Assembly (NCBI GenBank): GCA_038501195.1
Contig: JBBPUQ010000008.1
Coordinates: 1,932,501-1,996,500, forward strand
DNA: 64,000 bases
Reading direction: 5' to 3'
From: Nemania diffusa
Taxonomy: Eukaryota > Ascomycota > Sordariomycetes > Xylariales > Xylariaceae
Every line of letters starts with the position of its first letter. The stretch's first letter is position 1. The translations under genes were made by a program, and so were the position numbers. The notes under the pieces were generated by a model. The model made no database searches, was not told the DNA's origin, and worked only from the letters and a program-made list of their open reading frames with translations. Below are positions 4,773-27,109 of the stretch, piece after piece.

Positions 4773-4923
4773 TATTTTTATATTTTTATATTTTTATATT
4801 TTTATATTTTTATATTTTTATATTTTTATATTTTTATATTTTTATATTTTTATATTTTTATATTTTTATATTTTTATATTTTTATATTTTTATATTTTTA
4901 TATTTTTATATTTTTATATTTTA
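4773..4923. repeat. (TATTTTTA)n minisatellite
   Basis: Nearly perfect tandem copies of an 8-bp unit, about 18-19 repeats, inside AT desert 1. The regularity suggests expansion after the region became AT-rich. Confidence 0.85.
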
Positions 4924-6600
4924 TATAATATTATAAAAAATATATATAATTAAAAGTTAAAAATAAATAATTTATTTAAATATATTTTTAATATAATAGT
5001 TATAAATAATAAAAAATTTAAAATATATAAAGCTATATAATATAATAATAATAATAATAATAATAATATATTTATATAAATAATTTATAATAATTTAATT
5101 AAAATAAATTAATTTATTATATTTATAAAAGTTATAATAATAAATTATATAATATAATATATATTAAAATTAAAATATTTATTTTATTTTATTATTAATT
5201 TAAAACTATTAAAAAATAATATTATATAATATTTTTAATATTTCAAAAAATAAACAATATTATTTAAATTTTATTAATTTAATATATAAATAAAATAAAT
5301 TTTATATAATTCTTTATAATTATTTTTATATAATAATTAATTATAATAAATATTAAATTAATTAAATTATAATTTTTCATTTATAAATAAAACAAAATAA
5401 TTTAAAAAAAAAAAATATTTAAAATAATAAAAATTATAATTATTAAATTATAATTTATATAATATATATTAAAATTTAATTATTATAAATAATATTATTT
5501 TATATAATAATTATATTAATATATTTTAATATATTTAAATTTAAATTTGTTTTAATTAATTAAAACTTTATATATATAGTTTTATTGTTTAATTTATAAA
5601 TAAATTATTATTATATAATAAATATTTATTTTATTATTAAATAATATAATATTAAATATTTAAAATAATTATATAATTATAATTTTAAATAAACTTTTTT
5701 TTAAAATTATAATAATTATATAATAAAATTAATAAAAGAAATAATAATAAATATAAAATAAATTATTATATATAATATTTTAAAATAAAAAACTTTATTA
5801 TATAAAAATTATAATAAATTTATATTAAATTATAAAAATAATATAAATTTTTTATATAATAATATATTTTATAATAATTTAAATTTTAAAATTAAAAATA
5901 AAACAATTTAATTTTTAATAAATTTTATATATTTTTATTAAATATTAATATATATATATATATATTTAAAATTAAATATTAGCAATAAATAATTTTTATT
6001 TAAATAATTAATATAATTAAAATATTATTTATTAAAAAAAAAGTTTTATATAAATAAATTAACTTTAATATTTCAAATATAATATTTTTATTAATATTAT
6101 TATTATAAAATATAATTATATAATAAATTAATATAATAATATTTATTTTTTAATATTAATTAATTAAAAGTTATATTTAATATTAAATAAATATATATAT
6201 TATTTTATTATATATTTAAAATTTTATAAATAAAAAATATTATTATAAATAATTATAAAAATTTTAAAAAAATATAACTAAATTAATTAATTAATTAATT
6301 ATTTTCTTTATTTTTAAAGCTTATTTTAAAATTAAAAAATTAAAATTATATAAAATAATATAAAAATTAATATTAATTAAATTATATAAATAAAAAAAAA
6401 GTTTATATTATTATATAAAATATTTATTTTATTTTTTTAAAATAAAATTATAATATTATAAATAATATAATAAATAAAATAATTAAATTTTATTATATAT
6501 AAATTAAATTATATTATTAATAAAAAATTATATTTAATTTATTATATAAAATATAAAATTTTATATATAATATAATTAAATAAAATAATTATTATAATAA

Positions 6601-6935
6601 TTTATATAAGCTATTAATTTTTATATTTAGTTTATTAATTATAAATTAAAATTTATATATTTTATTATAATATAACTTTATAATTTTTATTAATATATAA
6701 AAACTATAATTTTTAAAAAACTTATTTTAAAAGATTTATTTTATAAAATTTCTTTTAAAAATTCTTTAATTAAATTTTATAATTTTAATTATAACTTTAT
6801 TTATAGTTTTATATATTTATATATTTTATATAATATATATATATAATTAAAGTTTTTTTTTATTTTTTTTTATTTTAAATCTTTTAATTAATAAAATTAT
6901 TTAATTAGTTTTTATTTTTTTTATAATTATAATAT
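6601..6935 (+). repeat. Dispersed degenerate repeat, copy 1
   Basis: About 330 bp that align in direct orientation with 17275-17575, sharing long A/T strings and the order of rarer G/C-bearing words, including the T-rich run followed by a TTTTAATTAATAAAATTATT word. The parent element is not recognised. Similarity fades on both sides. Confidence 0.6.
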
Positions 6936-9900
6936 AATTTTAAAGTTAAACTTTATATTTATTAATAAATGTTTAATTTAAATATATAACTTTTATTTAT
7001 TTTATATAATTTATATATTATAAATAAATTATTTTAATTATATATTTAAAATAAAACTATTAATTTAATATATTATTTATATTTTTTAAAAAAAATGTTA
7101 TTATTTAAAATTTTCAAATTAAATTTAAAAATTAATTAAATTTAATTAATTAATTAATTATAACTTTAATTATAATTTTATTTATTATTTAATTATTTAT
7201 AAAATTTATTAATAATAAAAATAAATTTAATAAATTAATTTTATATTAACAATTAAAAATAACAAATTAAAACAATAATAATAATTTTAATTAAAAAAAA
7301 AGTTTATTATTAACTAAAATATAATTATTATATATAAAATTTAAATTAACTTTTATTATTAATAAATAATTATATTATAAAAACAATTTAATTTTATTAT
7401 ATTTTTTAAATATAAATATAAAAGCAATATTTTTTAAAAAAAATTATAAATATTATGTTTTAGTTTTATAATATAATTATATAATTTATATTTAAAAAAC
7501 AATTAATTAAATTTAATAATTAATATATAATTTATTAAAATAAAACTAAAATAAAAGTTATATATTTTAAAAAATTTATTAATAATTAAAATAAATTTAT
7601 TAATAAATTTAAAAAAAAATAAAACTATTTTTTATAATAAAAAAAGTTAAATATATTATTTGTTTTTTTAATTTAAAAAATTTATTTTATAATTAATAAA
7701 AGTTTATTATTAATTTATTATTTAATTATTTAATAATATTTAATAATATAACTAAAATAATTTAAATATTAATTATTATTTATTATAATTTAAATTAAAT
7801 TATAATAATTTAATTATTTTTTATTAAATATTATTATAACTTTTTTAAATAATTAAATATTTATTAATTTATTTTATATTTTAATAGTTTTATTTAAAAC
7901 ATTTAAATATTAATTTCAAAAATAAAAATTTTAAAACTAATATTAATTTATATTTTATATATAAAAAATGTTATAATATAATTATTAATAATTATTAAAA
8001 AAAAAAAATTAAAAAGATTAAACTTTAAATATAAATAATTTTAAAAAAAGTTTTTATTTTAATAATAAATTTAATAAAATTAAAAAAAACATTAAATTTT
8101 TTTAAAATAATAAATATAAAAAATTAACTAATAATTAAAAAATATATATTAAAATATAAATTAATTTAAAAACTTAAATATTAATTTAAAACTAATATTA
8201 TTAATTAATTTTTATAATAAAATAATTAATAAAATAAATTAAATATTAATAATTATTTTAAAAATTTAAAATTATTAATATTAATTATTAAAATAAAACA
8301 TTTTAATAAATTATTAATATAAATAAATTATTTAATTTAATAATATTTTTATTTTTATATAATTGTTTTTTATAATTATTATTTTATTAAAAACTAAAAT
8401 TAAAAAAACAATTAATTTAAAAATTTAATAAATTATAAATTAATATAATAAAATAAAAAAAATTTAAATATAAAATTTAAATTAAAAAAAAAAAAAAATT
8501 TAAATAATATTAAAAAATGTTATAATATAATATATTAATTAATAATTTAATTTAAAATTTTAAAATTTATATTAATAATATAAAAGTTATAATTTAATTA
8601 AAATAAAATTATATAAATAATTTAAATTAAATTTATTAAAAAAAAGTTAATATATTTAATAAATTAATTTTAATTTAATATATTATAAAAATATTTAATA
8701 TTAATTAAATTATTAATATTAATATTTTCTATAAAAAATAATAAAAAACTTTTAATAATAAATTAATATTATTTTTATTTAATAAAAATTTAAAATATAT
8801 TAAATTTATAAAATAGTTAATATTTAAAAAATTAATTTATTTAAATTTTTTTTTTTTTAATTTAATTAATTAAAATATTATTGTTTTAATTTAGTTATAA
8901 TATAGTTTTAAAATTTAATAATAAATTTAAAAATAATAGCTTTTTATAATATTATATATTAATTTAATATATTTTTTTAAAATAAAAAATAAAAAAACTA
9001 TTAAAATTAAAATTTATTAAATTAAATATAAATTTAAATATAATATTTATTTTATTAATATTTAAATTTTATATTAATTTTTAATAATAAAATTAATAGT
9101 TAAAAAATTAAATTATTTAACTTTTTAATTTAAAAAATATATTTAAAATTTAATATTATTAATAATTAAATTTTATTTTTAAATTATAATTTAAATTAAA
9201 CTTAAAATTTTAAATTAAATAATATTATTATTTAATTTAAAAATAAAACTTATATAATAATAAAATTTTATTAATATATATATTAATAATATTTTAATTT
9301 ATGTTAAAATTATTATTATAAATTATTTAAATATAATTTTAAAAATTAACTAAAATATTAAAATAAATTTAAAAAAATTAAAACAATTAAAAATTAAAAA
9401 TTTTAAAATTTTAAAATTTTAAAAAAAAAATTTTTTATTATATTAATAATATTTTTAAATTATTTATATAATTATTTAAAAAAAATTATAAATAAATATT
9501 AAATTTAAAATAATATAAAACTTTTAAAATAATAAAAAAACTAATTATATTAATTTTAATATATATTAAAATAAATATTTTATATAATATAATTAAAAGA
9601 AATTATTTAATAAAATTAAAAAAAAAAAAAACAAATTATTAATTATTTTTTAAAAATTATAACTTTATATAAATAAATTTATTTTATATAAAACTAAAAA
9701 ATATTAATATTAATATAATTTTTTAAATATTGTTATTTTAAATTATTAAATATATAGTTTTAAATAATTATTAATTATTAATTATTAATTTATTAATTAA
9801 TTAAAAAAGCTTTTTTAATAAATTAAATTAAATAAATAAACTTTTTAAATAATTTTAACGTTATTTTTTAATATTAATAAAAAAAAACAATTTTATAAAT

Positions 9901-10416
9901 AATATATTTTTTTTAAAAAAAATTAATTTATTAATAATTAAAACTTAAAAATAAAATAAAAAAACTTTTATATTTATTAAATTAAATATAATTAAAAATT
10001 TTATAATTATTTTTTAATTTATTAAAATAAAAATATTAATTATAAAAAATAATAATTTAATTAATTTAATTTTAAAAAAAAAATATAATTTTAAATTTAA
10101 AAAGTTATAATAAATAAAATTATTTTTTTTAAATTATTTTATTATAAAAAATATATAAATTAATATTAATAATTTATTAAAATTAAACTAAATTAATATA
10201 AATATTTAAATAAATTTATTATTAGTTTTTTTTAAAAAAAAAATTATGTTAATATATTAACAATTGTTATAAATATAAATATAATAAAAAAATAAAAAAA
10301 AAAATTCAAAATTATTATATTTAATATTTATATTATAAAATATTTAAAAATATATAATAATAAATAACAAAAATATATTTTTAAATTAATATAAATATAA
10401 TTATATATAATTAATT

Positions 10417-10724
10417 TGTTGGACCAATGACCTGACAGGACCTGTACGTACGCACTAGGTGCGTACGACCAGGACCTGAACCAGGACCCTTATCAGGTAA
10501 CCGAATAGATAAGGAATACAGGGACCCACTGGGATCCACAGGACCCACAGGTCCCACGCACACACACATGTAAATAACCTGCGTACGACCCTTCTGGTCG
10601 TACTTCCCTTTGTAGAATACACACACGAATCAATACAGAACCTTAGGACCTGGAAACAGACCCCAAACCCCACGGATTACTCCGAATCCTCTTGTGTACG
10701 TACGTACGAAAAGTTCCACCAACA
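10417..10724 (+). repeat. 5' LTR of the intact copia element
   Basis: 308 bp from TGTTGG to CCAACA, identical to the 3' LTR except for one A/G difference. It contains five CGTACG palindromes (two overlapping near its 3' end) and should hold the element promoter, but I see no convincing TATA box. Bases just after it show no clear match to the usual tRNA 3'-end primer sites, so priming may use an internal or half tRNA. Confidence 0.96.
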
Positions 10725-11043
10725 CTGATCAGTGATTGCGGGACGCGATCACAGATTAGCAAAGTGAAGAGGCGGAGACCGGTTATTGTCAAGAATAACC
10801 TCCGTGCTACATCCTTTTTCCTTTCGTACGAGAAGTGGATTACCATTCTCGTCGATTGGCTGAAGACGCGTTGAATTGACCGTCGGACGAACAAGGCCTA
10901 ACTATCGTAGAGTTGAAGTTTCCTCTGCAATAGTCTGGTTGACCCTCGTACGAAGATCAACAAGACTGTGAGCCATTTCACACACCTACCCTTCCGACTA
11001 CCCTACCTACCCTACAACCCCTACCCTCCTACCTTCCACAATC
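10725..11043 (+). other. Element leader between 5' LTR and ORF1
   Basis: 319 bp of non-coding leader expected to carry the minus-strand primer site and packaging signals. The start (CTGATCAGTGATTGC) is self-complementary in part (CTGATCAG). It holds two CGTACG sites and ends in a pyrimidine-rich, C-rich stretch of CCTAC repeats just before the ATG. The corresponding bases in the mutated copy (about 24640-24959, reverse strand) can be matched base for base after C-to-T and G-to-A changes. Confidence 0.8.
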
Positions 11044-11985
11044 ATGTCAACACCGACGACAAGAGCAGCAGCGGCAGCGGCAGCTGCGGCAGCTGAACAA
11101 GCTCAAAACGACAATCCGGCAGCTTCGTACGATGAAGATGACTTTACGTACGAAGATATGGCCGAAGGCAGCAGCATCCAAATGAAAATTTGGAAGAAAG
11201 AGACAGATCCGAAGTATTGGGATACGACCATTGACCCTAATACCCCTTCGGAACCTATAAAATTGACAACATACTTCGCACGATGCCTACACGACTACAT
11301 ACGACTGAAAGTCGAAGGCGAACAGCTCGTACGAACATTTGCAATGGACTTTGACGGATGGACAAGATCTATGTTCGTAAATGTCAGTCGTACGTTCAAA
11401 CAAGAATTTGGCATTATGGTCGGACGTAACTTAGGTACCCGACTGCGCGGTACAACATACGATGACAAGTTTATCTACATTCTCAAGAAATATAGAGACG
11501 ACGATGATGACGAGTCGGACGATGATATGTCCGTACGAACGGCACCAGCTCCGGCATCTACACCGGCGAGCATATTAGAACCTCCCGTCGTACGAACGGA
11601 TCTTTTGGCACCACAACCGGCTGCACCAAGACCAGCGACACCAGCACGCCATGCGGTGCCTGGTACAAATGATCAAGTACCCAGTCCCTTCGTACGAACA
11701 GGAACCCAAGAACCTGTACCTACCCCGGGATTCCCACTGCGCATCCTGCGCCCCTACCCACGTACGAAGATCGGTCGTACGAACTTCCCCCTACCCGGAT
11801 TATTTACAATAGTCCGATTGAAACAGCCCAATTCACTGCGTTTACCAAGGTATGGCGATCCGACTGGAACTACAGCGGTAAGCCGTACGACATATTGTAC
11901 GACAAGGCTCGAATCTTTATTTCGACGTGCCGTCGACTCGGAATTACTGAAGGACAGTACTACGCAGTATTTCCTTCCGTACTAA
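11044..11985 (+). CDS. Copia ORF1: N-terminal gag-like protein
   Basis: The open frame encodes 313 residues from an ATG that follows the leader directly. It starts with a poly-alanine tract (about residues 8-17) and an acidic stretch. A middle region (about 45-160) could be a structural capsid-type domain, although I recognise no named family, and a proline/alanine-rich segment follows (about 165-245). The last residues overlap the second open frame, which is open from 11673 to 16037. The change from ORF1 to ORF2 requires a shift of -1 (or +2), or an unseen splice, somewhere in about 11673-11985. The gag-like sequence conserved in fungal copia elements appears in the ORF2 frame from about 11760 onward. 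That suggests the shift happens near the end of the proline-rich segment and that the last ORF1 residues are not functional. I see no canonical slippery heptamer. A simple indel in this copy is the alternative. Confidence 0.8.
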   Translation: MSTPTTRAAAAAAAAAAEQAQNDNPAASYDEDDFTYEDMAEGSSIQMKIWKKETDPKYWDTTIDPNTPSEPIKLTTYFARCLHDYIRLKVEGEQLVRTFAMDFDGWTRSMFVNVSRTFKQEFGIMVGRNLGTRLRGTTYDDKFIYILKKYRDDDDDESDDDMSVRTAPAPASTPASILEPPVVRTDLLAPQPAAPRPATPARHAVPGTNDQVPSPFVRTGTQEPVPTPGFPLRILRPYPRTKIGRTNFPLPGLFTIVRLKQPNSLRLPRYGDPTGTTAVSRTTYCTTRLESLFRRAVDSELLKDSTTQYFLPY

Positions 11986-14900
11986 AAGAAAGAGCCGAAC
12001 AGTACTATCTCAACTACATTGGTCCGACACGTAGATGGGACGAAATTTATACAATGCTCGACAATCACTTTAATACGACAGTTAACCATAGTCAGTACTG
12101 GACCGACTGGACGACTACTACCTTCGTACGAATGAAACAAGACAATCCGACGAAGACAATGCCTGAAGTATTAGAGACTATGATCGACAAGCTCCAACTT
12201 ACGCAACGTGCCCTAGGACCTGGCTACCATGGAGAAATACCACTTCATACAGCAGTCGTACGAGCATGCTCTGGCGTACCCGAGCTCGAACCTGCCCTGA
12301 TTAGTCAGAAACCTACGTGCGAAGCACTGTTTTCTGACCTGCGGGCAGCGCTGCAGGTTTCTCTCAATCGAGAGGTAAACCACTATCGTACGACAGACGT
12401 TCACTTCGTCGACAGACGGTATAATACCAAGTACCCGAAACGATCGTACGGTTATAGCCCCAAGAAGAATTTTCGTCGAGGACCACAGCGATCGTACGAT
12501 AAGAATAACAGAAGTGACAAGAAGTGCTTTATTTGCAAGAAGCCTGGTTGTTGGTCCACCAACCACAGCCAACAGGAAAGATCGAAGGCAAGAGAGCAAT
12601 ATCTTGCTGCGTGCGATACCCTAGAGCAAAAAGCCCCATCGTACGAAGAGTATGATGCATTTGTACTGGACTACGAAGGTGATGAGGACCTTCCGTACGA
12701 CAATGAATCTGATGACGACCTGGATTCTGAGACCGGAAACGAAACAGTCCAATTCTTGATGGATTCAGCATATCTCCATCGTACGACAGGAGAAGACATA
12801 TATGCCCAAGACCAAACGTCGACATCAGACAATTTCCACTTGGACAGCCAATATAGTACGAAATACCAAGGTATCCTATGGGATACTGGCGCAGCTAAGG
12901 TTTCGACTACTGGAAAAGCCCAAGCCGAAGCTTTCGTACGAGAGAACCCTTCCGTACGAATAGACTGGACCCCGGGCAGTGCAGCAATTCGATTCGGTGG
13001 TATCAAAGGCCTTGAAGCTATAGGTACTATGACGATTCCAACGTCGATTGGACCGATTGAATTCCACATTCTAGACGCACCGACCCCGTTCCTACTGTCG
13101 CTGCAAGACGCAGATCGACTGCACGCTTATTTCAACAACGTACAGGACGTGATCGTACGACAGGATGGTACAACAGTACCAATCGTACGAAAATGGGGAC
13201 ACCCGTTTTTCGACGTCAGCCGATCGGAAGCCGCAGGTTACTTCACAGAACAGGAGCTCCGAAGGTTACATCGTCGATTTGGACACCCTCGTACGGAGAG
13301 ACTTGTGAAGTTACTGCGAGAGGCTGGACATGATGACATTAACGTCTCAGTACTTCGAGAAATCAAGAAGTTTTGCCACCATTGTCAATCGTACGACCAA
13401 GCTCCAAGAAGATTTAAGTTTTCGCTGAAAGACGAATGCAATTTCAACTACGAAATAGTTATCGACGTCGTACAGATCAACGGACGACCGACTTTACACG
13501 TAATCGATACGAGTACTTCGTTTCAAGCAGCTAAATTTCTGAAGTCTTTGAGTGCGTACGATACTTGGGACGCACTATGCCAATGTTGGATTTTGGTATA
13601 CCAAGGGCCACCCGATTACATCGTACACGATCCCGGTACGAATTTTTCGTCCGAAGAATTTCGCAATAACGTACGACTAGTCGGAGCTTCGTGCAAAGAA
13701 ATGCCTGTCGAAGCACACTGGGCCGTCGGAAAAGTCGAACGGGCACATGCACCACTCCGTCGTACGTTTGATATTTTGTACAAAGAAATCGGTCACTGTA
13801 CGGACGAAGAAACAGTACTGCAAATGGCTATAAAAGCTTTAAACGATACAGCTGGACCGAACGGTCTCGTACCTACTCTACTAGTCTTTGGAGCCTACCC
13901 CAGAATCAACGGCGATTCACCCCCTTCGCCGGAAATTACCCAAAGAGCGGAAGCCGTACGAAAAGCTATGAAGATGTTGAGAAGTATTCGTACGAAAGTT
14001 GATATCGACCGAGCTATACAAACCAGAAACGGACCAGCATCATCGTACGAAGTACTTTCCCTACCCCTCCAGAGTGAAGTTATGGTATGGAGAGAACGAA
14101 AAGGCTGGACAGGACCGTATAAGATTTCTGCGATCGAAAATCGTGACATTACGGTCGATATGACGAACGGACCGGCCAAGTTCCGTTGCACACAGGTCAA
14201 GCCATACTACCGGCAAGAAGCTATGCCTGACCCATCGTACGAAGAGAATGACCCTTCGTACGACCCTCTCCAGGCTGTTGAACAGCCGCAACCCCGACGC
14301 AGAGGCAGACCGAGGAAGTCACCTGCACCCACTGGCGACCAATACCTTGCACCGAAAGAAGTCAACGATTACGCTCTAGCCGTACGACTGAGACAGGACG
14401 GTGTAATTACTACACCCGGCGCACCCTTTGAACAATCAGACGCAGCCGAAATAGACGCGCTGGCAACCCAGGGTGTATTTCAGTTCGTACGATATAACCC
14501 GGACCAACATGACCAAATGAGAATTTTCCGGACTAGGCTCGTACGAGAAGTCAAAGGTAAAACGACCAAGCCGTACGAAAAGTCCAGATTAGTTGTACAA
14601 GGTTATAGAGACGACGACAAAGTCCGAATTCTTACGCAAGCACCGACAATCCAGCGTATGAGTCAACGGTTTATCATGGCTTTGGGACCGTCGCTAATTC
14701 AAGACTACGGCATGCACGCGGAGCTGCGAGACATCTCTCAAGCATATACACAGTCGTACGACAAGTTGAACCGAGAGATTTATGCCTATTTGCCGAAGGA
14801 ACTGGAAAACAGGTACCCGGCAGGCACTATGTTTCGGATCGTACGACCATTATATGGATTGGCTGAGTCAGGATTATACTGGTATAAGACCTACCACAGA

Positions 14901-16037
14901 CATCACTGCCAGGAATTAGGCATGAAAGTGTCTACGTACGACCCATGTTTGCTGTATACTGAGAAGAAACCCGACGAATTTGCGATTACAGGACTTCAAA
15001 CGGACGATACGTTCAGTATTGTGTCTGAGAAGTTTTCGTACGAAGAAGAAACCAAGCTACCATTTCGCGCGAAACCAAAAGCAAAATTGACGCCCGAACA
15101 CCCCGTCGAATTCAACGGAAGCAAGATCCAAATGGACGGACAGGATTTCATCTTCACTCAACGGGGACAGGCCGAACAACTGCGTATTATTGACCTTCGT
15201 ACGGAAGATTATCCTCAGCAATATGTCGCTCAGCGAGCTCGAGGCGCATATATCGCGTCGGTATGTCAACCGGAAGCATCGTACGACCTGTCGATAGCTG
15301 CACAAGTTCAAGAGCCGTCAGAGGACGATGTTAAAGCATTGAACGTACGAATACAATGGCAGATCGACAACGCACAGCGAGGACTACGCTATATACCCTT
15401 GAATCTTAGTCGTACGAAGATCTTTATCTTCACCGACGGAGCGTTTGCAAACAACAAAGATTTGAGTTCTCAGATCGGATTTGTAATCGTACTAGCCAAC
15501 GAGAGCCGTACGAAAGACACCTTTACGATCGAAGGCAATATTGTTCACTGGAATTCAATCAAGTGCAAACGAGTCACACGTAGCGTACTGGCAAGTGAGT
15601 TATATGGCATGGTCAACGGATTCGACTGCGCTATTGCACTCGGTACGACCCTTCAGAGAATCATTCGTACGATGAAATTACCAACTGTACCACTGGTTAT
15701 ATGTACCGATTCCAAGTCTTTGTACGAATGTTTGGTCAAGCTGGGAACTACGCAAGAGAAGCGACTTATGATCGACATTATGTCACTTCGAGAAGCGTAC
15801 GAAAATCGTGAGATCACAGAGATACGTTGGATCGATGGCAAGGATAACCCGGCAGACGCTTGTACGAAGAAAGCACCTAACCAAGCACTGGAAAAGCTGG
15901 TTAGTACAAATAAGCTGGTCGTACGAGTGGAAGCATATGTAGATCGGTTGGACAGTGGAAGGAATGACGGAGGATTGGTTGACATTGGAACTGGAGTTAC
16001 CGCACAAAAGAAAGAATCTCCAGTGTTGGACCAATGA
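11895..16037 (+). CDS. Copia gag-pol polyprotein (ORF2)
   Basis: The first listed codon is TTG, not ATG. The frame is open further upstream to 11673, so it is probably translated by frameshift from ORF1. Counting from 11895: gag with a zinc knuckle CX2CX4CX4H (CFICKKPGCWSTNH, about residue 210); aspartic protease DTGA (about 330); integrase HHCC finger (H about 459, CHHC about 494) and a DDE core (IDVV about 523, HDPGTNF about 578, E in the EAHWAVGKVERAH region); reverse transcriptase with RDISQAY (about 946) and the TDD form of the catalytic box (LQTDDT, about 1035); RNase H with FTDGAF (about 1180), TDSK (about 1271) and DNPAD. No stop codons interrupt it. The stop lies 14 bp inside the 3' LTR, so the last residues are LTR-encoded. 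All catalytic motifs look intact, so this copy may be active. Confidence 0.95.
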   Translation: MYDKARIFISTCRRLGITEGQYYAVFPSVLKERAEQYYLNYIGPTRRWDEIYTMLDNHFNTTVNHSQYWTDWTTTTFVRMKQDNPTKTMPEVLETMIDKLQLTQRALGPGYHGEIPLHTAVVRACSGVPELEPALISQKPTCEALFSDLRAALQVSLNREVNHYRTTDVHFVDRRYNTKYPKRSYGYSPKKNFRRGPQRSYDKNNRSDKKCFICKKPGCWSTNHSQQERSKAREQYLAACDTLEQKAPSYEEYDAFVLDYEGDEDLPYDNESDDDLDSETGNETVQFLMDSAYLHRTTGEDIYAQDQTSTSDNFHLDSQYSTKYQGILWDTGAAKVSTTGKAQAEAFVRENPSVRIDWTPGSAAIRFGGIKGLEAIGTMTIPTSIGPIEFHILDAPTPFLLSLQDADRLHAYFNNVQDVIVRQDGTTVPIVRKWGHPFFDVSRSEAAGYFTEQELRRLHRRFGHPRTERLVKLLREAGHDDINVSVLREIKKFCHHCQSYDQAPRRFKFSLKDECNFNYEIVIDVVQINGRPTLHVIDTSTSFQAAKFLKSLSAYDTWDALCQCWILVYQGPPDYIVHDPGTNFSSEEFRNNVRLVGASCKEMPVEAHWAVGKVERAHAPLRRTFDILYKEIGHCTDEETVLQMAIKALNDTAGPNGLVPTLLVFGAYPRINGDSPPSPEITQRAEAVRKAMKMLRSIRTKVDIDRAIQTRNGPASSYEVLSLPLQSEVMVWRERKGWTGPYKISAIENRDITVDMTNGPAKFRCTQVKPYYRQEAMPDPSYEENDPSYDPLQAVEQPQPRRRGRPRKSPAPTGDQYLAPKEVNDYALAVRLRQDGVITTPGAPFEQSDAAEIDALATQGVFQFVRYNPDQHDQMRIFRTRLVREVKGKTTKPYEKSRLVVQGYRDDDKVRILTQAPTIQRMSQRFIMALGPSLIQDYGMHAELRDISQAYTQSYDKLNREIYAYLPKELENRYPAGTMFRIVRPLYGLAESGLYWYKTYHRHHCQELGMKVSTYDPCLLYTEKKPDEFAITGLQTDDTFSIVSEKFSYEEETKLPFRAKPKAKLTPEHPVEFNGSKIQMDGQDFIFTQRGQAEQLRIIDLRTEDYPQQYVAQRARGAYIASVCQPEASYDLSIAAQVQEPSEDDVKALNVRIQWQIDNAQRGLRYIPLNLSRTKIFIFTDGAFANNKDLSSQIGFVIVLANESRTKDTFTIEGNIVHWNSIKCKRVTRSVLASELYGMVNGFDCAIALGTTLQRIIRTMKLPTVPLVICTDSKSLYECLVKLGTTQEKRLMIDIMSLREAYENREITEIRWIDGKDNPADACTKKAPNQALEKLVSTNKLVVRVEAYVDRLDSGRNDGGLVDIGTGVTAQKKESPVLDQ
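16006..16016 (+). promoter_or_regulatory. Candidate polypurine tract
   Basis: AAAAGAAAGAA, a pure purine run ending 7 bp before the 3' LTR. Plus-strand priming in LTR elements normally starts at such a run, usually directly next to the LTR. The 7-bp gap makes this assignment tentative. It lies inside the end of ORF2. Confidence 0.45.
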
Positions 16038-16331
16038 CCTGACAGGACCTGTACGTACGCACTAGGTGCGTACGACCAGGACCTGAACCAGGACCCTTAT
16101 CAGGTAACCGAATAGATAAGGAATACAGGGACCCACTGGGATCCACAGGACCCACAGGTCCCACGCACACACACATGTAAATAACCTGCGTACGACCCTT
16201 CTGGTCGTACTTCCCTTTGTAGAATACACACACGAATCAATACAGAACCTTAGGACCTGGAAACAGACCCCAAACCCCACGGATTACTCCGAATCCTCTT
16301 GTGTACGTACGTACGAAGAGTTCCACCAACA
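16024..16331 (+). repeat. 3' LTR of the intact copia element
   Basis: 308 bp, TGTTGG...CCAACA, one difference from the 5' LTR. It supplies the last codons and stop of ORF2. It is followed directly by the target duplication TAATT and AT-desert DNA. Confidence 0.96.
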
Positions 16332-19300
16332 TAATTATTAATAAATTTAATAAAATTATTGTTATTTTATTTAATTAAAAAATAAATAATATAAAAAAAC
16401 TAATATTTAAATATTATTATATATTATATTATATTTTTAATAATATAAAACTATTTATTTTAAAATTTATAAAAATATTAAATTTATTAATAAATATTAA
16501 ATATAAATAAAATAATATTTATTATTTTTAAATATAAAATATTATAAAAATATAAATTATAATTGAAATTAAAAATTATATTTTTATATAAATAAATATT
16601 AAAAAGATTAAAATAAATATTTGTTAATTTTAAATTTTATATATAATTTTTTATAATGTTTAAAATTAAATTTTAAAATTATTTAGTTTTTATATTTAAA
16701 AAAAAAAATTTATTAATAAATAAATTAAATAAATATAAAAACTAATTATTTAAATATAATAAATTTAAAAATTTATATATAAAGTTATTAAAATTATATA
16801 AAAAAATTAAAAAATTTAAATTAATAAAAAATAAAAGTTTATTAATTTTTTTAAATATAATAAAATATAGTTATAAATTAAATATATTAAATTTATATAA
16901 AAATAAAAACTTATTTTATATAAATAAATTAAAATAAATAAATAATAATTAAATATTATAATAATTATAAAATTTAATATTAATTAAAAAAATTAATAAT
17001 AAATTAAAATTTAAAATAAATTAAATATTAAAATTAAAATAAAATAAAAATTTAATAATATTTAATATTTTATAAAAAACTTTAAAAATATATTTATTAT
17101 ATTAAATTAATATTATTTAAATTAATTTATTAAATTAAAATTATTAATTAAATTATAAAACTAAATAAAATTAAAAATTATAAATAAATTTATAAAAAAG
17201 TATAAAAATAATAATAAAATATTTAATTTAAATATTATATTTATTTAATTTTTAAAATAAATAATATAATAATTTATATAAATTATTAATTATAAATTAA
17301 AACTTATATATTTAATTATAATAAAATTTTATAATTTTTATTAATTTATAAAAATTATTATTTTTAAAAAAACTTATTTTATAAAATTTATAATAAAAAA
17401 ACTTTAATTAAATTTTATAATTTTAATTATAATTTTATTTATAATTTTATATATTTATATAATTTATATAATATATATATATAATTTAAGTTTTTTTTTT
17501 TTTTTTTTTAAGTTTTTAATTAATAAAATTATTTAATTAATTTTTATATTTATTATAATTATAACAGTTATTTTAATAAAAATAAACTTTATATTATAAT
17601 AAATTTTATTAATAATAAAATAAAAATAAATAATAAAAATAAATTAAAATTTAAATTAAATATATTTTTTTTATTAATTTTAAACTAGTTTTTTATTTTA
17701 TATTATATTTTTAAATTTAATATATAATTTTATTTTAAATAATATATTTTAATATAGTTTTTTTTAAATTATTAAATAATTATAATTTTAATATAAAAAT
17801 AAATTAAAAAAGTTTTATTATATTTATTAATAATTAATATTTAAATTATATAATAAAAATAAAATAATATAATTAAACAAAAGTTTTTTAAATTAAATTT
17901 ATATAAAATATAAATAAAAAAATGTTTAAATTATATTAAACTATAAAAATAATAATAAAATTTAAATTTATATATAAACTTTAAAACTATTATTAATATA
18001 AAATTATAAAATATTATTTAATTATATATATAATTATATAAAAAATTAAATTAAAAATATTTATATTTATTTATTAAAAATAAATATTTAATAAATATTA
18101 TATAATTATTATTAAAAATTAAATATAAAAATTTTAATATATAATTTATATTTAATATATATGTAAAAAAATAACTTTATAAATTTATAATTAAAACTTT
18201 TAAAAAATAATATTTTTAATATTATATTTAAATTGTTTTTATATAAAATTAAAACTAAAATTAATATTTAAATAATTTATTAAATTTATAAAAATAAAAT
18301 TTACATAAATAAATTAATTTTTTTTATTTATAAAAATAATTATTAATAATATATTATTTTTATATATTAATTATTATATAAATTTAAAAATTATTAAAAA
18401 TAATATTAAAAAATTAAACTTATAAATATAATAATAAATTAATAATATATAAAAAAATTATAATTAATATTTTTAAATTTTAATTAAATAAAAATGTAAA
18501 TTTTTAATTTAAATTTATAATTATATTAAATTATAAAAACTATATAAAAAATAATAATATTTATTAAATTTTAATTAAAAATAAATATATTTTTTTAATA
18601 TATTAATAAATTTAATTAAATAATTATATTATTAATTAAATATAAAAAAACAATTTAATATAAATAAATTAATTATTTAAATAAAAATATATATAAATTA
18701 ATTAATATTAAAATTAAAATTAAAGTTTATATATAAAAAAAATTATTAAAAAATTAAATAAATAAAAAATAAAAAAAAATATTATATTTAAATTATATAA
18801 TTATTATATAAATAAATTAATTTAAAATATATTATAATTTTAATTATAAAATATTAAATATAAATATATTTATATATAATTTAAATTTATTATATATTAA
18901 AAAAAACATTAATAAATTTATTATTATAAATTTTAAATTAATAATATTATATTAAAAAAGCTTTTATATAAATTTAATAATAAATAAATAATATATTAAT
19001 AATAATAAAAATTTAATATATATTTATATTATAAAAGCTTTTTATTTTAATAAAATAAAATAATTTATAAAATTTAATAAATATTAAAATTAAAAATATT
19101 ATTTAAAATTTTTTATTAAATTAATAATTTAATTTAATTTATATTTTTAAATATATAATTAAAAGTTTAATTATATTATTAAATAAATATTAAATAATTT
19201 TTATTTTATAATTTATAAATTTTATAAATTTTATATAAATAAATATTAATTTAAAATTTAAAGTTAATATATATAAATAAAGTTTTATTAATATTAAAAA

Positions 19301-19392
19301 GTTTATTTTAAAAAATATTTATTATATTTATAAATATTTAATAAATAAATTAATATAATAAAACTTTTATTATAATTTATTATTAATTAAAT
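16332..19392. other. AT-rich desert 2a, no genes
   Basis: Near-pure A/T continuing the desert that the intact element entered. Recognisable pieces: 17275-17575 matches 6601-6935, and about 18178-18240 matches about 26570-26632 (a shared run around AATTTATAATTAAAA, then TTTAATATTATATTTAAAT). Both are likely relics of further repeat families. Nothing else could be assigned. Confidence 0.75.
17275..17575 (+). repeat. Dispersed degenerate repeat, copy 2
   Basis: Direct-orientation partner of 6601-6935. It includes the same T-run plus AATTAATAAAATTATTTAATTA word. The family is unknown. Confidence 0.6.
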
Positions 19393-19700
19393 TATTAATA
19401 AAACGTTTTATATATATATATATAAAAAGATTTAAAATAATTTATAAAGTTTAAAGTTTATTTTTAAGTTTTAAAGTTTTATATTAATTTATATATATAT
19501 TTTATAAAAAAAAATAGAATTAAAAAAGTTATATATAAATTATTTATATATATATATATATAAAATTTATAAATTTTATAAATTTTAATAAATTTTTATA
19601 TTTTTTATTTATTTAATTATTTAATAAAAATTTTAGTTTAAATTTTAATTATATATATTTAATATATATATATAAATTTTATTAAATAATTAATTTAATA
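19393..19700 (-). repeat. 3' LTR relic of copy A
   Basis: 308 bp, beginning TATTAATAAAAC (mutated TGTTGGTGGAAC) and ending TTAATTTAATA (mutated TTGGTCCAACA). The tandem CGTACG sites of the intact LTR have become TATATA runs. At least one transversion separates it from the intact LTR, so its parent was a related, not identical, copy. Confidence 0.92.
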
Positions 19701-22700
19701 TTAAAGCTTTTTTTTTTTATATAATAATTTTAATTTTAATATTAATTAATTTTTTGTTATTTTTTTTTATTATTTAATTGATTTATATATATTTTTATTT
19801 ATATAATTTATTTATTTATATTAATTAGTTTTTTTAATATTTAATTAAATATTTTTTTTATATTAATATTTATTAAGTTATTTTTATTATTAATTTAATA
19901 TATTTTTATAATTTTATAATTTTTATATATTTTTTAAATTAATATAATATTAATTATAGGTTATTTTTTTAAATAATTTTTAATTTAATTAAATATTTAT
20001 ATAAAAATTTAAAATCGATATATATAACTAATAATATAATTAATAGTTTTATTATATAAATAATTTTTTAAAAAATTATATTAAATATAATAATATAATT
20101 AAATTTATTAATTATATTATATAATTTATTTATTAATATATTATATATAATTTATTTATATTTAATTAAATTTTAATAAATAATTTTATTTTTAATTATA
20201 AAAATATTTTTTATAAAATTTTTATTAGCTAATATAATTATAAATTTAATTTAAAAATTTAAATTTTTATTATTTATAAATATTTTATTAATAAAAATAA
20301 AAATTTTTATATAACTAAAATTTAAAAATATATAATATAATTTTTATTATATATTATTAATTTATTATTATATTTATATATTTAATATTTTAATGTTATT
20401 TTTTAATAGTTTTTAAATTTATATATTAATTAATAAGTTATATAATATTTTTAATTAATATATTAATATAATATATATATTTTAAATTTATTAAATAATA
20501 TATTATTAAAAATAGTTTTTTTTATAAAAATTAATAATATATAATTATTTGATTTATTTTTATTAAATAAAAAAAAATCATATTTATTTATTTAGATTTT
20601 ATTTTTATTAAATTTAATAAAATATTTAAATATTAATTTTATTTTTAGTTTTATATAAAATAATAACTTAGTTTTTTTTTTATATAAAGATTTTTTAAAT
20701 ATAATATTAAAAATATTATTTATTTAAAGTTTTATAATTATAAATTTATTAAATTATTTTTTAATATATAATAAATATAAAATATATTTAAATATTTTTA
20801 TATTTAATTTTTAATAATAATATTTATAATAAATTTTATATTAATATAATTTTAATTTAATTAATTTATATAATAATTATATAATTTAAAATATAATATT
20901 TATTAAATTTTAGTTTTTTAGTTTTTTTAATAAATAAATATAAATTTTATAGTTTAATTTATTATATAATTATATATATATTTTAAAAATATTTTATAAT
21001 TTTATATATATATATTATAGTTTTAAATTAATAATAATTTTAAAATTATAATAAATTATTAATTTATATATTAAATTATTAATATTTATATAAAAATTTA
21101 AACTTTGTTATTATTTTTATAACTTTATATAATTTAATTATTTTATTTTTAATATTTTATATAAATTTAATTTAAAAGATTTTTATTTAATTATATTAAT
21201 TTAAATTATATTTTAAATTATTAATATATTTATTTTAGTTATATTTAATTATTTAAAAAATGTATTAAATATAATAATTATATTATTTTATTTTAATTAT
21301 ATAATTAAAATATAATTATTAATTTTTTTTAATATAAAATATTAATTGTTAATAAATATAAATAACTTTTTTAGTTTATTTTTATATTAAAGTTATAACT
21401 ATTTAATAATTTAAAAAAAATTATATAAAAAGTTATTTTTTTATATAATAAATTAAATATAATTTTTTATTAATAATATAGTTTAATTTATATATAATAA
21501 AATTTAGTTAATTTATTTATTATATTAATTATAATATTATAATTTTTAATTATAAAAATTTTATATAATTTTATTTAGTTTTTATATTTTTTTTATATTA
21601 TAATTTTATTTTAAAAAAATAAAAAAAATATTTTATATAATAATATTAATTTATTTTTAATTTATATAATTTAGTTAATATTAATTTTTATATAAATATT
21701 TTTTAATATTTTTATATTTTTTTATATAGTTTTTATTTTTTAAATAATTTTTAATAAAAAAAATAAATCGTTATTAATTTTAAAATAAACTTTAAAAATT
21801 AATAAAATAAATATAAAACTATTTAATTTAATTATATTATTTAAAACTTTTATAATTATTTATAATATTATATTTTTATTTATATAATAATTGATTTTTT
21901 TATATAAAATATTAAATATATAATAAAATAATATATTTATTTATTTAATTTTTTTAATAATTTAATATATTTTAATAAATATTTTTTTATATAAAGTTTT
22001 AATTAGTTATATATTATTATAAAATTTTTTAAATAAAAAATTTATATTAAAATTATATATAATATAATTAAATAACTTTTAATATATTAAAATTTAATAT
22101 TAATATAATATATTTTAAATATTATATATATTTAAAAATTTTAAAAATTTAGTTATTTAAAATAAAATATTTATATTAATTATATATAAAATTAATTATT
22201 TATTAATTTATATAATATTAATAATAATTTTATAATTAAAATTATATTTATTTTTTAATTAAAATTTAAATTTTTTTAAAATTTAGTTATATAATTAATA
22301 ATAATAATAAAATTTTTTAATTTTTTAAAATATTAAAATATTAATATTATTATATTTAATTTTTTATAATAATTTTATAAATTTTTTTATATAAAAATAT
22401 TTAAATTAACAATATAATTTTTAAAATTTTTATTTTATAAAATAATTTATAGTTTTTAATTAGTTAATATTAAAAAATAAATATTTTTATTTTTATATAA
22501 TTAATATTATTATATTATTTTATTATATAATTATATTTTATATATTATTAAAATAAATATATAATTAATTTATATTTTATAATAATAATAAAAATAAAAT
22601 TAATATATTTAAAATATAAAATTTAATTAATTTAATTAATATTAAAATTATTATAATATTTATAATTTTAAAACTTTTAATATAATTAAATCAAATTATT

Positions 22701-24959
22701 ATATTATTTAAAATTTAGTTTATTTATATAAAAAAGTTTTTTTATATAAAAGTTTTAGTTTAAACTTTTTTAATAATTAAAATTTTAGCTATATTAATAT
22801 TTTATAAAATATTTTAATATTTTATATTATATTAATTATTTAAATAAAAATTATTTAATATTAATATTTAATTTTAAATATATATATATTTTTTTTATTA
22901 TATAATAAAAATATATTAAATTTATTAAAAATTAAACTGTTTTATTTTTAGTTTTAAAATTTAAATTATTATTAAATTTATTATTATATAAAAAGTTTTT
23001 ATTACTTTTATAGTTTAATATAAATATATTATATTTTTTATATAATAAAGTTTTTTATTTTAAAATATTATATATAATAAAATATTACTTTTTTATTTTT
23101 AATTTTTTTTATTAATTATAATTAATAAATTAATAATTAAGCTTTTTATAAATAAAATATTTTTTGTTATTTTTATTATTTTTATTATATAATTATTATA
23201 GTTTTTAATAAAAATTTTTTTTAAAGCTATAATTATATAATTATTTTAAATATTTAATATTATATTATTTATTAATAAAATAAATATTTATTATATAATA
23301 ATAGTTTATTTTTTAATTAAAAAAAATTTATAATATTATTTATAAATTAAAAAATAAAGCTTTATATATAAATTTTTAATTAATTAAAATAAATTTAAGC
23401 TTAAATATATTAAAATATATTTATATAACTATTATATAAAATAATATTTTTTTATAATAGCTAAATTTTAAAATATATTATATAAATTAAAATTTATTAA
23501 TTATAGTTTTTAATATTTTAAATATTATTTTTATTAAATTATTTTATTTTATTTATATAAAAATAATAATAATTTAGTTAATTTAATATTAATTATAATT
23601 ATTTATTATATTAAAATAATTATTAAATATTATATAAATTTTAATTTATTTATATATTAAATTAATATAATTAAAATAATATTAATTACTTTTTTTTTTT
23701 AATATAAAAAAAAATATTATATAATATTATTTTTTAATAATTTTAAATCGATAATATATTAAAATAAAAATTCGAGTTTTATTATATAATATATTATATA
23801 ATTTATTATTATAATTTTAATTAAACTATTATATTTTAATAAATATAATAAATTAAGCTGTTTTAATTAAATTATTATAAATAATTTAAATAAAAAAAAA
23901 TTTATATAATCGATTTTTATATATAAATAAAAATATAAAATATATAATAAAAATTTTAAAAGTAAATATAAATTTTTAAATTTTTATTTATATAAAAAAA
24001 ATAAATATTTAATTATTTATATTAAATATTAAAATATATATTAATATTATTAATTTTAATATAATCAGTTATAATATTAACAAATTTATTTATATAATAA
24101 AAAGTTTTAATATATTAATTAATATAAATATTAAAATTAATATTATTTATATAAATATATTATTGTTTAATTTATTATTATTTTTATTTTTATATTTTTA
24201 AAAAATATAAATAAATTTATTATTATATATTATATTATATAATTAAATATTTAAATTATTTTTAATTATAATATTAAATTTTTGTTTAAATATATAATTA
24301 ATATTTATAAATATAAATTTTATTTATTTATTAAAATTTATTGTAAATATTTATATAAACTGTTTTTTTTTAATTTTTAATTATATATAATTATATAAAT
24401 ATTATATAAAATATATTATTAATTTTATAAATTTTAAAAAAATATTAAAATCAATAGTTATATTTTAATATTTTAGATCTGTTTTTTTTTTAAATTTTTA
24501 TTTAAATATTATTATTTTTAACTATATTTTTATATATAAAGTTATTTTTATTATATAAAGCTATTAAATTGTTATTTTAAATTTATTTAATTATTATAGC
24601 TATTATTATTATTACTGCTTTTATTATTAATATTAATATAATTATAAAAAATAAAAAAATAAAAATTATAAAATAAATAAAATAGTTAAAAAAATAAATA
24701 TATAAAATAATTTATAGTTTTATTAATTTTTATATAAAAATTAATTAAATTATTATAAAAAAAACTTTAATTTTTTAATAGTTAAGTTTTATTTATTTAA
24801 TAATTAATTTAATATATTTTTAATTAATTAATAAAAATAGTAATTTATTTTTTATATAAAAAAAAAAAAAAATATAGTACAAAAGTTATTTTTAATAATA
24901 ATTAATTTCTGCTTTTTTATTTTATTAATTTATAATTATATTTTATAATTATTAATTAA

Positions 24960-25267
24960 TATTAATAAAACTTTATATATATATATATATATAAAAATTT
25001 AAAATAATTTATAAAATTTAAATTTTATTTTTAAATTTTAAAGTTTTATATTAATTTATATATATATTTTATAAAAAAAAATATAACTAAAAAAGTTATA
25101 TATAAATTATTTATATATATATATATATATAATTTATAAGTTTTATAAATTTTAATAAGTTTTTATATTTTTTATTTATTTAATTATTTAATAAAAATTA
25201 TAATTTAAGTTTTAATTATATATATTTAATATATATATATAAATTTTATTAAATTATTAGTTTAATA
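24960..25267 (-). repeat. 5' LTR relic of copy A
   Basis: 308 bp, direct repeat of 19393-19700 with scattered C/T and G/A differences, as expected if mutation struck each LTR independently. It is followed by TAAAT, the right target duplication. Confidence 0.92.
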
Positions 25268-27109
25268 TAAATTATATTAATAATTATAATTATATAATAT
25301 TTATTTTATTAATAAATTAATTAAATAATTTATAAATAAATATTATAATTAATATTAAATTAATTATAATATAAATATAATAATTAATTAATATAATAAT
25401 TATATAAATATATTTATATATATTTAAATTTAAAATTATTTTAATTATTTAAAAAGTTTATATATAAAATATTATTATTTTTATTTTTATATAATATTAT
25501 AATTTTAATTTAATTAAAAATTTATTTATTATTATATATTAAATATATATAATAATTTAAAATTTTTATATAAAAACTTTAAATATAAAAAAATTATTTT
25601 AATTAAATTAATATAATTTAAAGTTTTTATTTTTATATTTATTAAATATTTTAAATTAAATATATATTATATAATTATATAAATATTTTATTTTAAATAA
25701 TAAAAAATTTAAAATATATTATATTAATATTAAATTTCTTTTATTATAATATATATTTAATTAAAATATTATATTTAAAAATAATTATTAAAATATAATA
25801 TATTATTTATAAAATTATATAAATTTATATATAATTTTATTATATATTAAAAACTTTGTATAAAAATATTAAATAGTTATTTATTTAATTAAAAATTATA
25901 TTTATTTTAAAATATTAAAAATTAATTTTTTTTATATATTTTTAAAAAACTTAAATTATTATAATTATTTTAGAATTTTTTTTATAAATTATAACTTTAT
26001 TTAAAATTATAAAATATAATTTTAAAATTTTAAATTTATAAAAATAAAATTTTTTAATTAAATTATATAAAATATTATAAAAATAATAATAAAATAAAAT
26101 AATTTATATTTATTATATTTTAATAAAATTTTAATAAATTTAATATTTTAATTTTTTTTATTATATTAACTGTTTTAAATAAAAAATTATATTATTTATA
26201 TTAATATATAATAAAAAAAAAAATTTTTTTGTTAATAATAAATATTTTATTATATAAATTTAAAAATACTTTTATAATTTATTAATTTTATTAAAAAATT
26301 ATATATTAAATTAATATTAATTATTATATAATTATTAATAAATTAATTATAATAATATTATATTTTAATAAAAAATTAATAAATTAATAAAAATAATTAT
26401 ATAATTATAACTATTTAATTTTAAAAAATAAATATATAATAATATAAATAAATTATTTTTAAAGAAATATTTTAATAAACTTTTTATTATTTATTTAATT
26501 TTTTGCTATTAAAATTAAATTTAATTGTTTCGTTATAATTTTATTATTTATTTAAATAATAAATTTTAATAAATTTATAATTAAAATTTTAAAATAATAA
26601 TATTTTAAATATTATATTTAAATAATATTTATAAATAATAATTAAATTATTATTTTATATAAAAATAAATTAAATATTTATATTATATTATTATATTAAA
26701 TATAAATATTATATAATTTATTAATTATTATATAAATTAAAAAATTATAAAAAATTATAAAAACTTTTATATTTATTTATTAAATATATAATAATAATAT
26801 TAATATTAAAATTTAAATTAAATTTATATTTATATTAATTAATAACAACTATATAAATAATATATTATTAATTATAAATAAAATTAATAATATTAATAAA
26901 TTTTATTAAATTTATTTATTTTTTATAATTTTTATACATAATTATTAAAATATATATTTATAAAATAAAATAAATTATTAATTTAATATTAAAATTTTTT
27001 AATATAATTATTTAAATTATAATATAAAATAATATTTTATAAATTTATATATATTAATAATATTATATAAATTATTATATAATTAATATTTATATTATAA
27101 TTAATTTTT
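25268..27109. other. AT-rich desert 2b, no genes
   Basis: Near-pure A/T between two copia relics. About 26570-26632 matches 18178-18240, so sequence on both sides of copy A seems to share a second, older repeat family. No coding potential or RNA gene was seen. Confidence 0.7.

What the first reader, a model, noticed from the sequence alone, without database searches (positions are those of the whole stretch)
19393..25267. A full-length RIP-destroyed sibling of the intact copia element, decodable from the AT desert
This stretch looks like featureless A/T. Replacing every C with T and every G with A in the reverse complement of the intact 308-bp LTR gives the sequence at 19393-19700 and 24960-25267 almost exactly. 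Both relic LTRs are 308 bp, and the element is 5875 bp against 5915 bp for the intact copy. The leader beside the 5' LTR also matches base for base, and a TAAAT target duplication flanks it. One window therefore holds the same family before and after mutation, which shows where this desert came from and allows a site-by-site reading of mutation context.
Basis: partly seen in the sequence, partly recalled or inferred. Interest (0 to 1): 0.9.

Follow-up and report, generated by a model that had tools for sequence, protein, structure and literature searches.

The report
Mutated retrotransposon with unusual mutation code
An A/T-only stretch of a fungal chromosome is a destroyed copy of a retrotransposon whose undamaged sibling lies nearby, and the graded series of damaged copies suggests that this fungus's anti-repeat mutation system chooses cytosines by the base before them (T or C) rather than by the base after them, as the classical form does.

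Summary
Observation confirmed. 19393-25267 is a full-length, antisense, hypermutated sibling of the unmutated Ty1/copia-type element at 10417-16331: 5869 aligned positions, 2670 transitions, 52 transversions, collapsed identity 99.1% against 81-83% in six controls; both LTRs coincide (305 and 303 of 308; best elsewhere 188). About 95% of C:G pairs are gone.

The new part is the mutation code. The genome (55.6 Mb) holds at least six near-identical unmutated copies and a graded series of mutated ones. In the two least mutated, C after T or C is hit 4-6 times as often as C after A or G, and the 3' base hardly matters (deviance 5' v 3': 504 v 11, 637 v 19; next copy 606 v 53). Classical RIP reads the 3' base (CpA). 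A second family shows the same rule less sharply, and so do leftover C in deserts elsewhere (68 of 72 follow a purine in four sampled pieces). A slower tier at RpCpA/RpCpG follows. The genome encodes two RID-like, one DIM-2-like and one DNMT5-like methyltransferase. I read this as RIP with a 5'-pyrimidine dialect; the deaminating enzyme is unknown.

The parts
10417..16331 (+). unmutated Ty1/copia-type LTR retrotransposon, 48% GC, inserted in a desert of about 2% GC
   Evidence: (RVT_2, E 3.3e-8); five further near-identical copies elsewhere in the genome
10417..10724 (+). 5' LTR of the unmutated copy, 308 bp
   Evidence: 307 of 308 identical to the 3' LTR
16024..16331 (+). 3' LTR of the unmutated copy, 308 bp
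10412..10416 (.). target duplication TAATT (left)
16332..16336 (.). target duplication TAATT (right)
11044..11985 (+). first long open frame, gag-like by position only (313 aa)
   Evidence: no Pfam match
11895..16037 (+). second long open frame, pol (1380 aa), in another register
   Evidence: RVT_2
19393..25267 (-). full-length hypermutated relic of the same family, 2.8% GC
24960..25267 (-). 5' LTR of the relic (antisense), 308 bp
   Evidence: 303 of 308 in the collapsed alphabet
19393..19700 (-). 3' LTR of the relic (antisense), 308 bp
   Evidence: 305 of 308 in the collapsed alphabet
19388..19392 (.). target duplication TAAAT (left)
25268..25272 (.). target duplication TAAAT (right)
1..10416 (.). 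A/T desert, 2.0% GC; leftover C preceded by A or G in 86%
45001..51000 (.). less saturated desert, 6.9% GC; leftover C preceded by A or G in 97%

Best explanation
The relic is a copia element that was inactivated by repeat-induced point mutation (RIP) or a very close equivalent, repeated over several rounds until almost no C was left. In this fungus the process has its own dialect. In the first tier a C is deaminated if the base 5' of it is T or C, almost whatever follows; one strand can be hit harder than the other along a whole copy. In the second, slower tier the spared RpC sites are lost, RpCpA and RpCpG first. Shown here: C-to-T on both strands of two repeat families with gene islands of the window spared, the graded series, the 5' rule in both families and in deserts elsewhere, and the presence of RID-, DIM-2- and DNMT5-like genes. 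Inferred: that the process is triggered by duplication in the sexual phase as in Neurospora, that RID paralogues are involved, and that the late CpA/CpG tier is a second enzyme or deamination of methylated C.
For: Relic v sibling: 2663 losses of C:G, 7 reverse transitions, 52 transversions. Graded series, C>T / G>A on the sense strand: L020 18/33%, L032 47/24%, L021 46/53%, L029 71/71%, L027 75/73%, L024 82/86%, relic 93/96%, L033 95/97%. 5' rule in the youngest: L020 TC .47, CC .36, AC .08, GC .06 while CA .26, CC .22, CG .24, CT .29; L032 TC .53, CC .64, AC .16, GC .12 while CA .40, CC .33, CG .32, CT .40; deviance for 5' v 3' base 504 v 11, 637 v 19, 606 v 53 in L020, L032, L021; cross-validated AUC for the -1 base .72-.74, for +1 .51-.55, in these three. 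Second family L044 v L050-L052: CC .79-.91, TC .64-.84, AC .47-.53, GC .40-.45, with 2 transversions in each of three comparisons of 1697-1699 positions. Deserts: leftover AC exceeds TC 4.5- to 26-fold in six window stretches (the relic among them), against 0.83 in two gene islands; 12 flanks under 5% GC: leftover C preceded by A 78%, T 9%, C 0.6%; the four desert pieces of a 40-point sample: A 50, G 18, T 4, C 0. Strand bias: L032 YC sense .81, antisense .38; same-strand patches decaying over about 200 bases in L020, comparable to the one-strand clusters reported for N. crassa (91.9% of clusters, passages of PMC7296669). Enzymes: two RID-like proteins 39% identical over the catalytic part with PPCQ and EQT motifs, a DIM-2-like protein with BAH and catalytic domains, a DNMT5-like one (label recalled).
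Against: No cross, no timing and no methylation data: the trigger is inferred. In N. crassa RID is tied to CpA, so the presence of RID genes does not predict this dialect. The context tables rest on eight copies of one family and three comparisons in another; in the second family the contrast is weaker (roughly twofold or less) and CpA is the best 3' context (.69-.75), though those copies are already 58-66% mutated. In the saturated relic the 3' base matters nearly as much (100 v 66). Wider context (+-4) raises the AUC from .72-.74 to .78-.79, so the -1 base is not everything. The excess of same-strand over opposite-strand clustering is clear in L020 only; in L032 beyond 3 bases, and in L029, the two are alike. 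Six unmutated copies show that the process can be absent for some time.
Confidence: 0.8

Rival explanations
1. Classical CpA-directed RIP taken to saturation, other contexts being hit only late.
For: RID-like genes present; CpA is the best 3' context by a small margin in L021 (.56 v .37-.52) and in the second family (.69-.75 v .47-.68); the index (CpA+TpG)/(ApC+GpT) is below 0.7 in the three desert stretches tested and in six of the eight mutated copia copies, and TpA/ApT rises to 1.4-1.5 in the three least mutated copia copies.
Against: In the least mutated copies the 3' base explains almost nothing and the 5' base nearly all. The index (CpA+TpG)/(ApC+GpT) does not move in fresh copies (0.79 unmutated, 0.79 in L020, 0.77 in L032) while the TpC index falls from 0.93 to 0.59 and 0.56; its late fall follows partly from ApC being spared.
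Confidence: 0.07
2. A free AID/APOBEC-like cytidine deaminase edits the cDNA or the single-stranded DNA of retroelements, with no RIP machinery.
For: The YpC code is what such enzymes prefer (recalled). Two proteins match the Pfam family Inv-AAD (2.3e-60 and 9.2e-57), one being a paralogue of unknown role. Both families examined carry reverse transcriptases.
Against: cDNA editing would hit one strand once; here both strands reach 93-96% in a graded series. The closest solved structure of both proteins is 7DRZ, which I recall as an Aspergillus Rib2 riboflavin deaminase, so at least one is probably metabolic. APOBEC_N and NAD1 gave no match, but their controls did not ring, so absence is not shown.
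Confidence: 0.08
3. Ultraviolet damage: C-to-T at dipyrimidines has the same YpC code (recalled).
For: The 5' pyrimidine rule.
Against: The gene island at 52-64 kb shows no TC loss (TC index 1.20), and six unmutated copies sit inside the deserts. Light cannot single out repeats, and loss of about 95% of C:G pairs with few other changes is not what a genome-wide mutagen would leave beside working genes (inference).
Confidence: 0.01
4. Slow deamination of methylated C plus drift to A/T in heterochromatin.
For: DIM-2-like and DNMT5-like genes exist; CpG is lost late relative to YpC, as slow deamination would give (RCG/YC hazard .14.12.26 in L020, L032, L021 and .43-.96 later; rough at saturation).
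Against: Two transversions beside 433-494 losses of C:G in 1.7 kb, and 2663 losses beside 7 reverse transitions and 52 transversions in the relic: too lopsided for drift. It may explain the second tier only.
Confidence: 0.03

Closest known systems
Repeat-induced point mutation of Neurospora crassa (RID-dependent)
   Same: C-to-T in repeats, strand bias, several rounds, RID-like genes in the genome
   Different: Neurospora prefers CpA, the 3' base (passage of PMC10787394; start of the abstract of PMC2621366 in the listing says so for most fungi); here the 5' base decides and the most saturated deserts fall to about 1-4% GC
RIP-like hypermutation of Microbotryum (TpCpG)
   Same: a 5' T is part of the target (passages of PMC5381629)
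   Different: there a 3' G is needed too, and PMC4352252 found no RID/Masc1-class gene in that basidiomycete (passages); here CpG is not preferred early and a 5' C serves as well as T
Strong RIP in the lichen fungus Cladonia rangiformis
   Same: deserts of retrotransposons, young copies of higher GC nested in them, RID and DIM-2 homologues (passages of PMC12542154)
   Different: ripped DNA peaks near 16% GC there; CpA and trinucleotide do not occur in its text and TpC only as a journal code, so its context is not given
AID/APOBEC editing of retroelements in animals
   Same: TpC/CpC code, strand bias (recalled)
   Different: here both strands of integrated DNA are saturated over several rounds; no such enzyme identified

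Membership tests
RIP (sensu Neurospora) | C:G to T:A transitions nearly exclusively | tested here: met
   2663 losses of C:G against 7 reverse transitions and 52 transversions; 2 transversions in each of three comparisons with L044
RIP (sensu Neurospora) | confined to repeated DNA, genes spared | tested here: inconclusive
   two repeat families mutated and the window's gene islands have normal TC and CC; unique non-coding DNA was not tested
RIP (sensu Neurospora) | CpA is the preferred target | tested here: not met
   the 5' base decides in the least mutated copies
RIP (sensu Neurospora) | clusters on one strand per round | tested here: inconclusive
   L032 biased (.81 v .38), same-strand patches clear in L020 only; several rounds probably overlap
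RIP (sensu Neurospora) | RID/Masc1-class methyltransferase in the genome | tested here: met
   two paralogues; no tree was made, and that EQT marks the class is recalled
RIP (sensu Neurospora) | acts between mating and meiosis, triggered by duplication | not testable with these tools
   needs a cross
Ty1/copia LTR retrotransposon | LTRs TG..CA, 5-bp target duplication, RVT_2 reverse transcriptase | tested here: met
AID/APOBEC editing | an AID/APOBEC-class DNA deaminase in the genome | tested here: inconclusive
   no match but controls silent; two Inv-AAD matches, both closest to 7DRZ

The most novel reading that the evidence does not exclude
This fungus runs a two-step repeat mutation system: a fast step whose deaminating enzyme reads the 5' pyrimidine, as AID/APOBEC enzymes do, either a RID paralogue with changed specificity or a separate deaminase recruited to paired repeats, and a slow CpA/CpG step. 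Between them they remove nearly every C. Because the common context counts look at the 3' base, the same dialect could be present but unrecognised in other genomes.
Probability: 0.4. Interest if true: 0.85.

Novelty: new variant of a known kind. Interest (0 to 1): 0.7.

Why it matters
Which enzyme deaminates C in RIP is, to my knowledge, still open. A natural change of code from the 3' to the 5' neighbour, in a genome with two RID-like genes, makes that testable: the code is a reporter for the enzyme. It also warns that the common index (CpA+TpG)/(ApC+GpT) does not move in fresh copies and at the late stage would be read as CpA-type; the other common index, TpA/ApT, does rise but says nothing of context. 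The series of siblings from 0% to about 96% mutated in one genome gives the order in which contexts are lost.

Tried and rejected
Rejected: classical CpA RIP as the whole explanation, slow deamination plus drift, ultraviolet damage, cDNA editing alone (see rivals). The idea that the unmutated lineage itself carries old scars was tested and not supported: where it has T and a mutated copy has C, the 5' pyrimidine share is .12-.43 over seven copies against a background of .47-.48. Further relics of this family in the window's other deserts: only weak local scores (712 at 5071-9586, 417 at 16389-19246, 413 at 25287-30713, 362 at 119-3499, the other four searches, against 227 for one shuffled desert); not pursued. 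Rfam on the window: nothing.

Rows dropped: one search listed 41 LTR matches (it scored 40 of 77 candidates, so this is a lower bound); the 24 best were covered by the window and the loci (18 in nine pairs, 6 single), the 17 ranked lower were not looked at. Of the 20 loci, the context tables use seven (L020, L021, L024, L027, L029, L032, L033) plus the relic. Left out: L015-L019 (unmutated), L022 (poor alignment, 580 transversions), L025 and L026 (the same solo LTR), L023, L028, L030, L031 (stretches overlapping or next to copies already used) and L034 (partial). L027 and L033 are incomplete copies. Of nine deaminase loci, eight were scanned (L043, a short match with a stop, was not). Of 19 matches of the second family, the query and three others were compared.

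In the listings of searches (15 of 220 papers shown), 45, 46, 47, 67 and 79 I saw no paper that announces a 5'-pyrimidine RIP code, but I saw only listings and passages, the library is open-access only, the term TpC also matches a journal code, and none of the 13 papers holds the RIP phrase. 'Not described before' is therefore not claimed.
Full report
Observation. The stretch 19393-25267 (2.8% GC) was aligned with the reverse complement of the unmutated element at 10417-16331, allowing C-to-T and G-to-A at no cost. Of 5869 aligned positions 3147 are identical, 2670 are transitions and 52 transversions; 11 gaps total 52 bases; collapsed identity is 99.1%. Six controls gave 81-83% and scores of -14 to 222 against 5612. 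Both LTRs coincide, 305 and 303 of 308 in the collapsed alphabet, with a best of 188 at 23,900 other desert positions. The two relic LTRs are 291 of 308 identical to each other, those of the unmutated copy 307 of 308. The relic runs antisense to its sibling.

What the element is. The sibling has TG..CA LTRs, a 5-base target duplication and a pol frame with an RVT_2 match, so it is of the Ty1/copia type. The genome, 55.6 Mb in 16 contigs, holds five further full-length copies that differ from the window copy at a handful of positions, all with perfect 5-base duplications; all six copies are inserted in A/T deserts (flank GC 1-7%). In a systematic sample of 40 pieces of 300 bases only 4 had GC under 15% and 3 between 15 and 35%. 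Six of six young copies in deserts is therefore more than expected by chance, through targeting or through loss of other insertions; I cannot separate the two.

The graded series. Beside the unmutated copies there are mutated ones at many stages: L020 (C>T 18%, G>A 33%), L032 (47%, 24%), L021 (46%, 53%), L029 (71%, 71%), L027 (75%, 73%), L024 (82%, 86%), the relic (93%, 96%) and L033 (95%, 97%) (sense strand of the element). The complete ones, 6 of 6 with the relic, again have perfect 5-base duplications.

The code. In the relic alone nearly everything is gone, and 108 of the 150 C:G sites kept are RpCpT or RpCpC. The younger copies show the order. In L020 the mutated share is TC .47, CC .36, AC .08, GC .06, while by the 3' base it is CA .26, CC .22, CG .24, CT .29; in L032 TC .53, CC .64, AC .16, GC .12 against CA .40, CC .33, CG .32, CT .40. 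The deviance explained by the 5' and 3' base is 504 v 11 (L020), 637 v 19 (L032), 606 v 53 (L021), falling to 100 v 66 in the saturated relic. In 10-fold cross-validation the -1 base alone gives AUC .72-.74 in these three copies, the +1 base .51-.55, positions -2 and +2 .50-.58, and all positions within 4 bases together .78-.79. So the first tier is mainly YpC, almost whatever follows, with some weaker influence of wider context.

Second tier. Among the spared RpC sites the 3' base has no influence in L020 (.07-.08 for all four), but later CpA and CpG run ahead: L029 RCA .63, RCG .70, RCT .42, RCC .39. Relative to YpC, the RCG hazard rises from .14 and .12 in the two youngest to .43-.96 from L029 on (rough where YpC is near saturation). 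That fits a second, slower process at CpA and CpG; whether another methyltransferase or deamination of methylated C is open. N. crassa offers a parallel: a passage of PMC11969663 says that for older repeats a double knockout is needed to abolish RIP (that the second gene is dim-2 is recalled).

Not only this family, not only this window. A second element family with an RVT_1 domain (L044, C7) was compared with three mutated copies: CC .79-.91, TC .64-.84, AC .47-.53, GC .40-.45, with 2 transversions per comparison of 1697-1699 positions. The contrast is weaker than in the young copia copies and CpA is also the best 3' context (.69-.75), as at the middle stages of the copia series; these copies are already 58-66% mutated, and the reference L044 has itself two stops in its RVT_1 match. 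Leftover C in deserts shows the same rule without any alignment: AC exceeds TC 4.5- to 26-fold in six desert stretches of the window (the relic among them) against 0.83 in two gene islands; in 12 desert flanks under 5% GC, A precedes 78%, T 9% and C 0.6% of leftover C; in the four desert pieces of the systematic sample, which have 4-10% GC, 68 of 72 leftover C follow a purine. In the same deserts the 3' base is skewed too, T over A by about 1.6- to 4.7-fold, which is the trace of the second tier. Flanks of 5-30% GC are more mixed, with CC still present in some (L022, L024, L025, L027, L034); these probably join mutated and normal DNA but were not dissected.

Strands. L032 is mutated far more on one strand (YpC .81 sense.38 antisense), and in L020 mutated sites cluster on the same strand over about 200 bases more than on the opposite one; in L029 the two are alike, in L021 nearly so, and in L032 the excess is limited to neighbours within 3 bases. 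N. crassa shows clusters that are 91.9% strand-exclusive (passages of PMC7296669).

Genes that could do it. Four DNA methyltransferase loci were found: two RID-like (L009, in two frames, and L010, a 796-aa frame; 39% identical over the catalytic part, both with PPCQ and EQT), a DIM-2-like protein with BAH and catalytic domains and a DNMT5-like protein (this last label and the EQT signature are recalled). PMC4352252 reports one or two RID/Masc1-like genes in the five species with a CpA signature, some with CpT as well; its signatures are of the CpN type in the passages seen. Nine loci matched the cytidine deaminase family; eight were scanned. Two match Pfam Inv-AAD strongly, but their best solved relative is 7DRZ, which I recall as an Aspergillus Rib2 riboflavin deaminase. 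L038 is probably Rib2; L039, 49% identical to it, is a paralogue of unknown role. No dedicated AID/APOBEC deaminase is shown, and none is excluded, because the controls were silent.

A methodological point. RIPCAL counts CpN and, in its authors' words, was not designed to detect a trinucleotide bias (passages of PMC2621366). The index (CpA+TpG)/(ApC+GpT) stays at 0.79 and 0.77 in L020 and L032, as in the unmutated copy (0.79), is 0.65 in L021 and 0.23 in the relic, whereas (TpC+GpA)/(ApC+GpT) falls from 0.93 to 0.59, 0.56 and 0.39 in L020, L032 and L021. TpA/ApT does rise early, from 1.03 to 1.42, 1.41 and 1.53, and falls back to 1.07 in the relic (all). So early mutation of this kind is visible in the product index but not in the substrate index, and the late stage would be taken for CpA-type.

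Degree. The most saturated deserts of the window have 0.6-3.7% GC per kilobase, others 4-13%. This lies below the local peak near 16% reported for the strongly ripped C. rangiformis (passages of PMC12542154). A two-tier code that covers all contexts is a sufficient explanation.

Verdict. The added value is the 5'-pyrimidine code, a variant of RIP whose enzyme is unknown. I score it as a new variant of a known kind, interest 0.7. I do not claim that it is undescribed: the searches were few and limited to open-access papers.

Noticed in passing
10417-16331 and L015-L019: All six unmutated copies of the element sit in A/T deserts with A/T-only target duplications, although only 4 of 40 sampled points have GC under 15%: targeted insertion into heterochromatin or loss elsewhere.
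   Followed up: partly
G000 C14, C15, C16 and C3:908599: Nine full and two partial, nearly identical, unmutated matches to an RVT_1 element on three small contigs, and one on C3; the small contigs may be rDNA, a place known to escape RIP (recalled).
   Followed up: no
G000 C12 and C13: Several RVT_1 frames with TGA codons inside, as in a mitochondrial genome with many introns.
   Followed up: no
L022, G000 C8:989706-990397: Two nearly unmutated LTRs of this family only 76 bases apart.
   Followed up: no
L025, G000 C7:4161684-4161989: A nearly unmutated solo LTR with target duplication GCAAC, probably a recombined insertion.
   Followed up: no
5071-9586, 16389-19246, 25287-30713: Weak collapsed-alphabet matches to the element (scores 712, 417, 413 against 227 for one shuffled desert): perhaps older relatives under the deserts.
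   Followed up: no
L020, L021, L029: LTRs are less mutated than the whole element in some partly mutated copies (L020 .13 and .18, L021 .26 and .30 against about .25 and .50; L029 3' LTR .21 against .71); not so in L024 and the relic.
   Followed up: no
L038 and L039: Two Rib2-like deaminases in one genome, 49% identical; the second one's role is unknown.
   Followed up: partly
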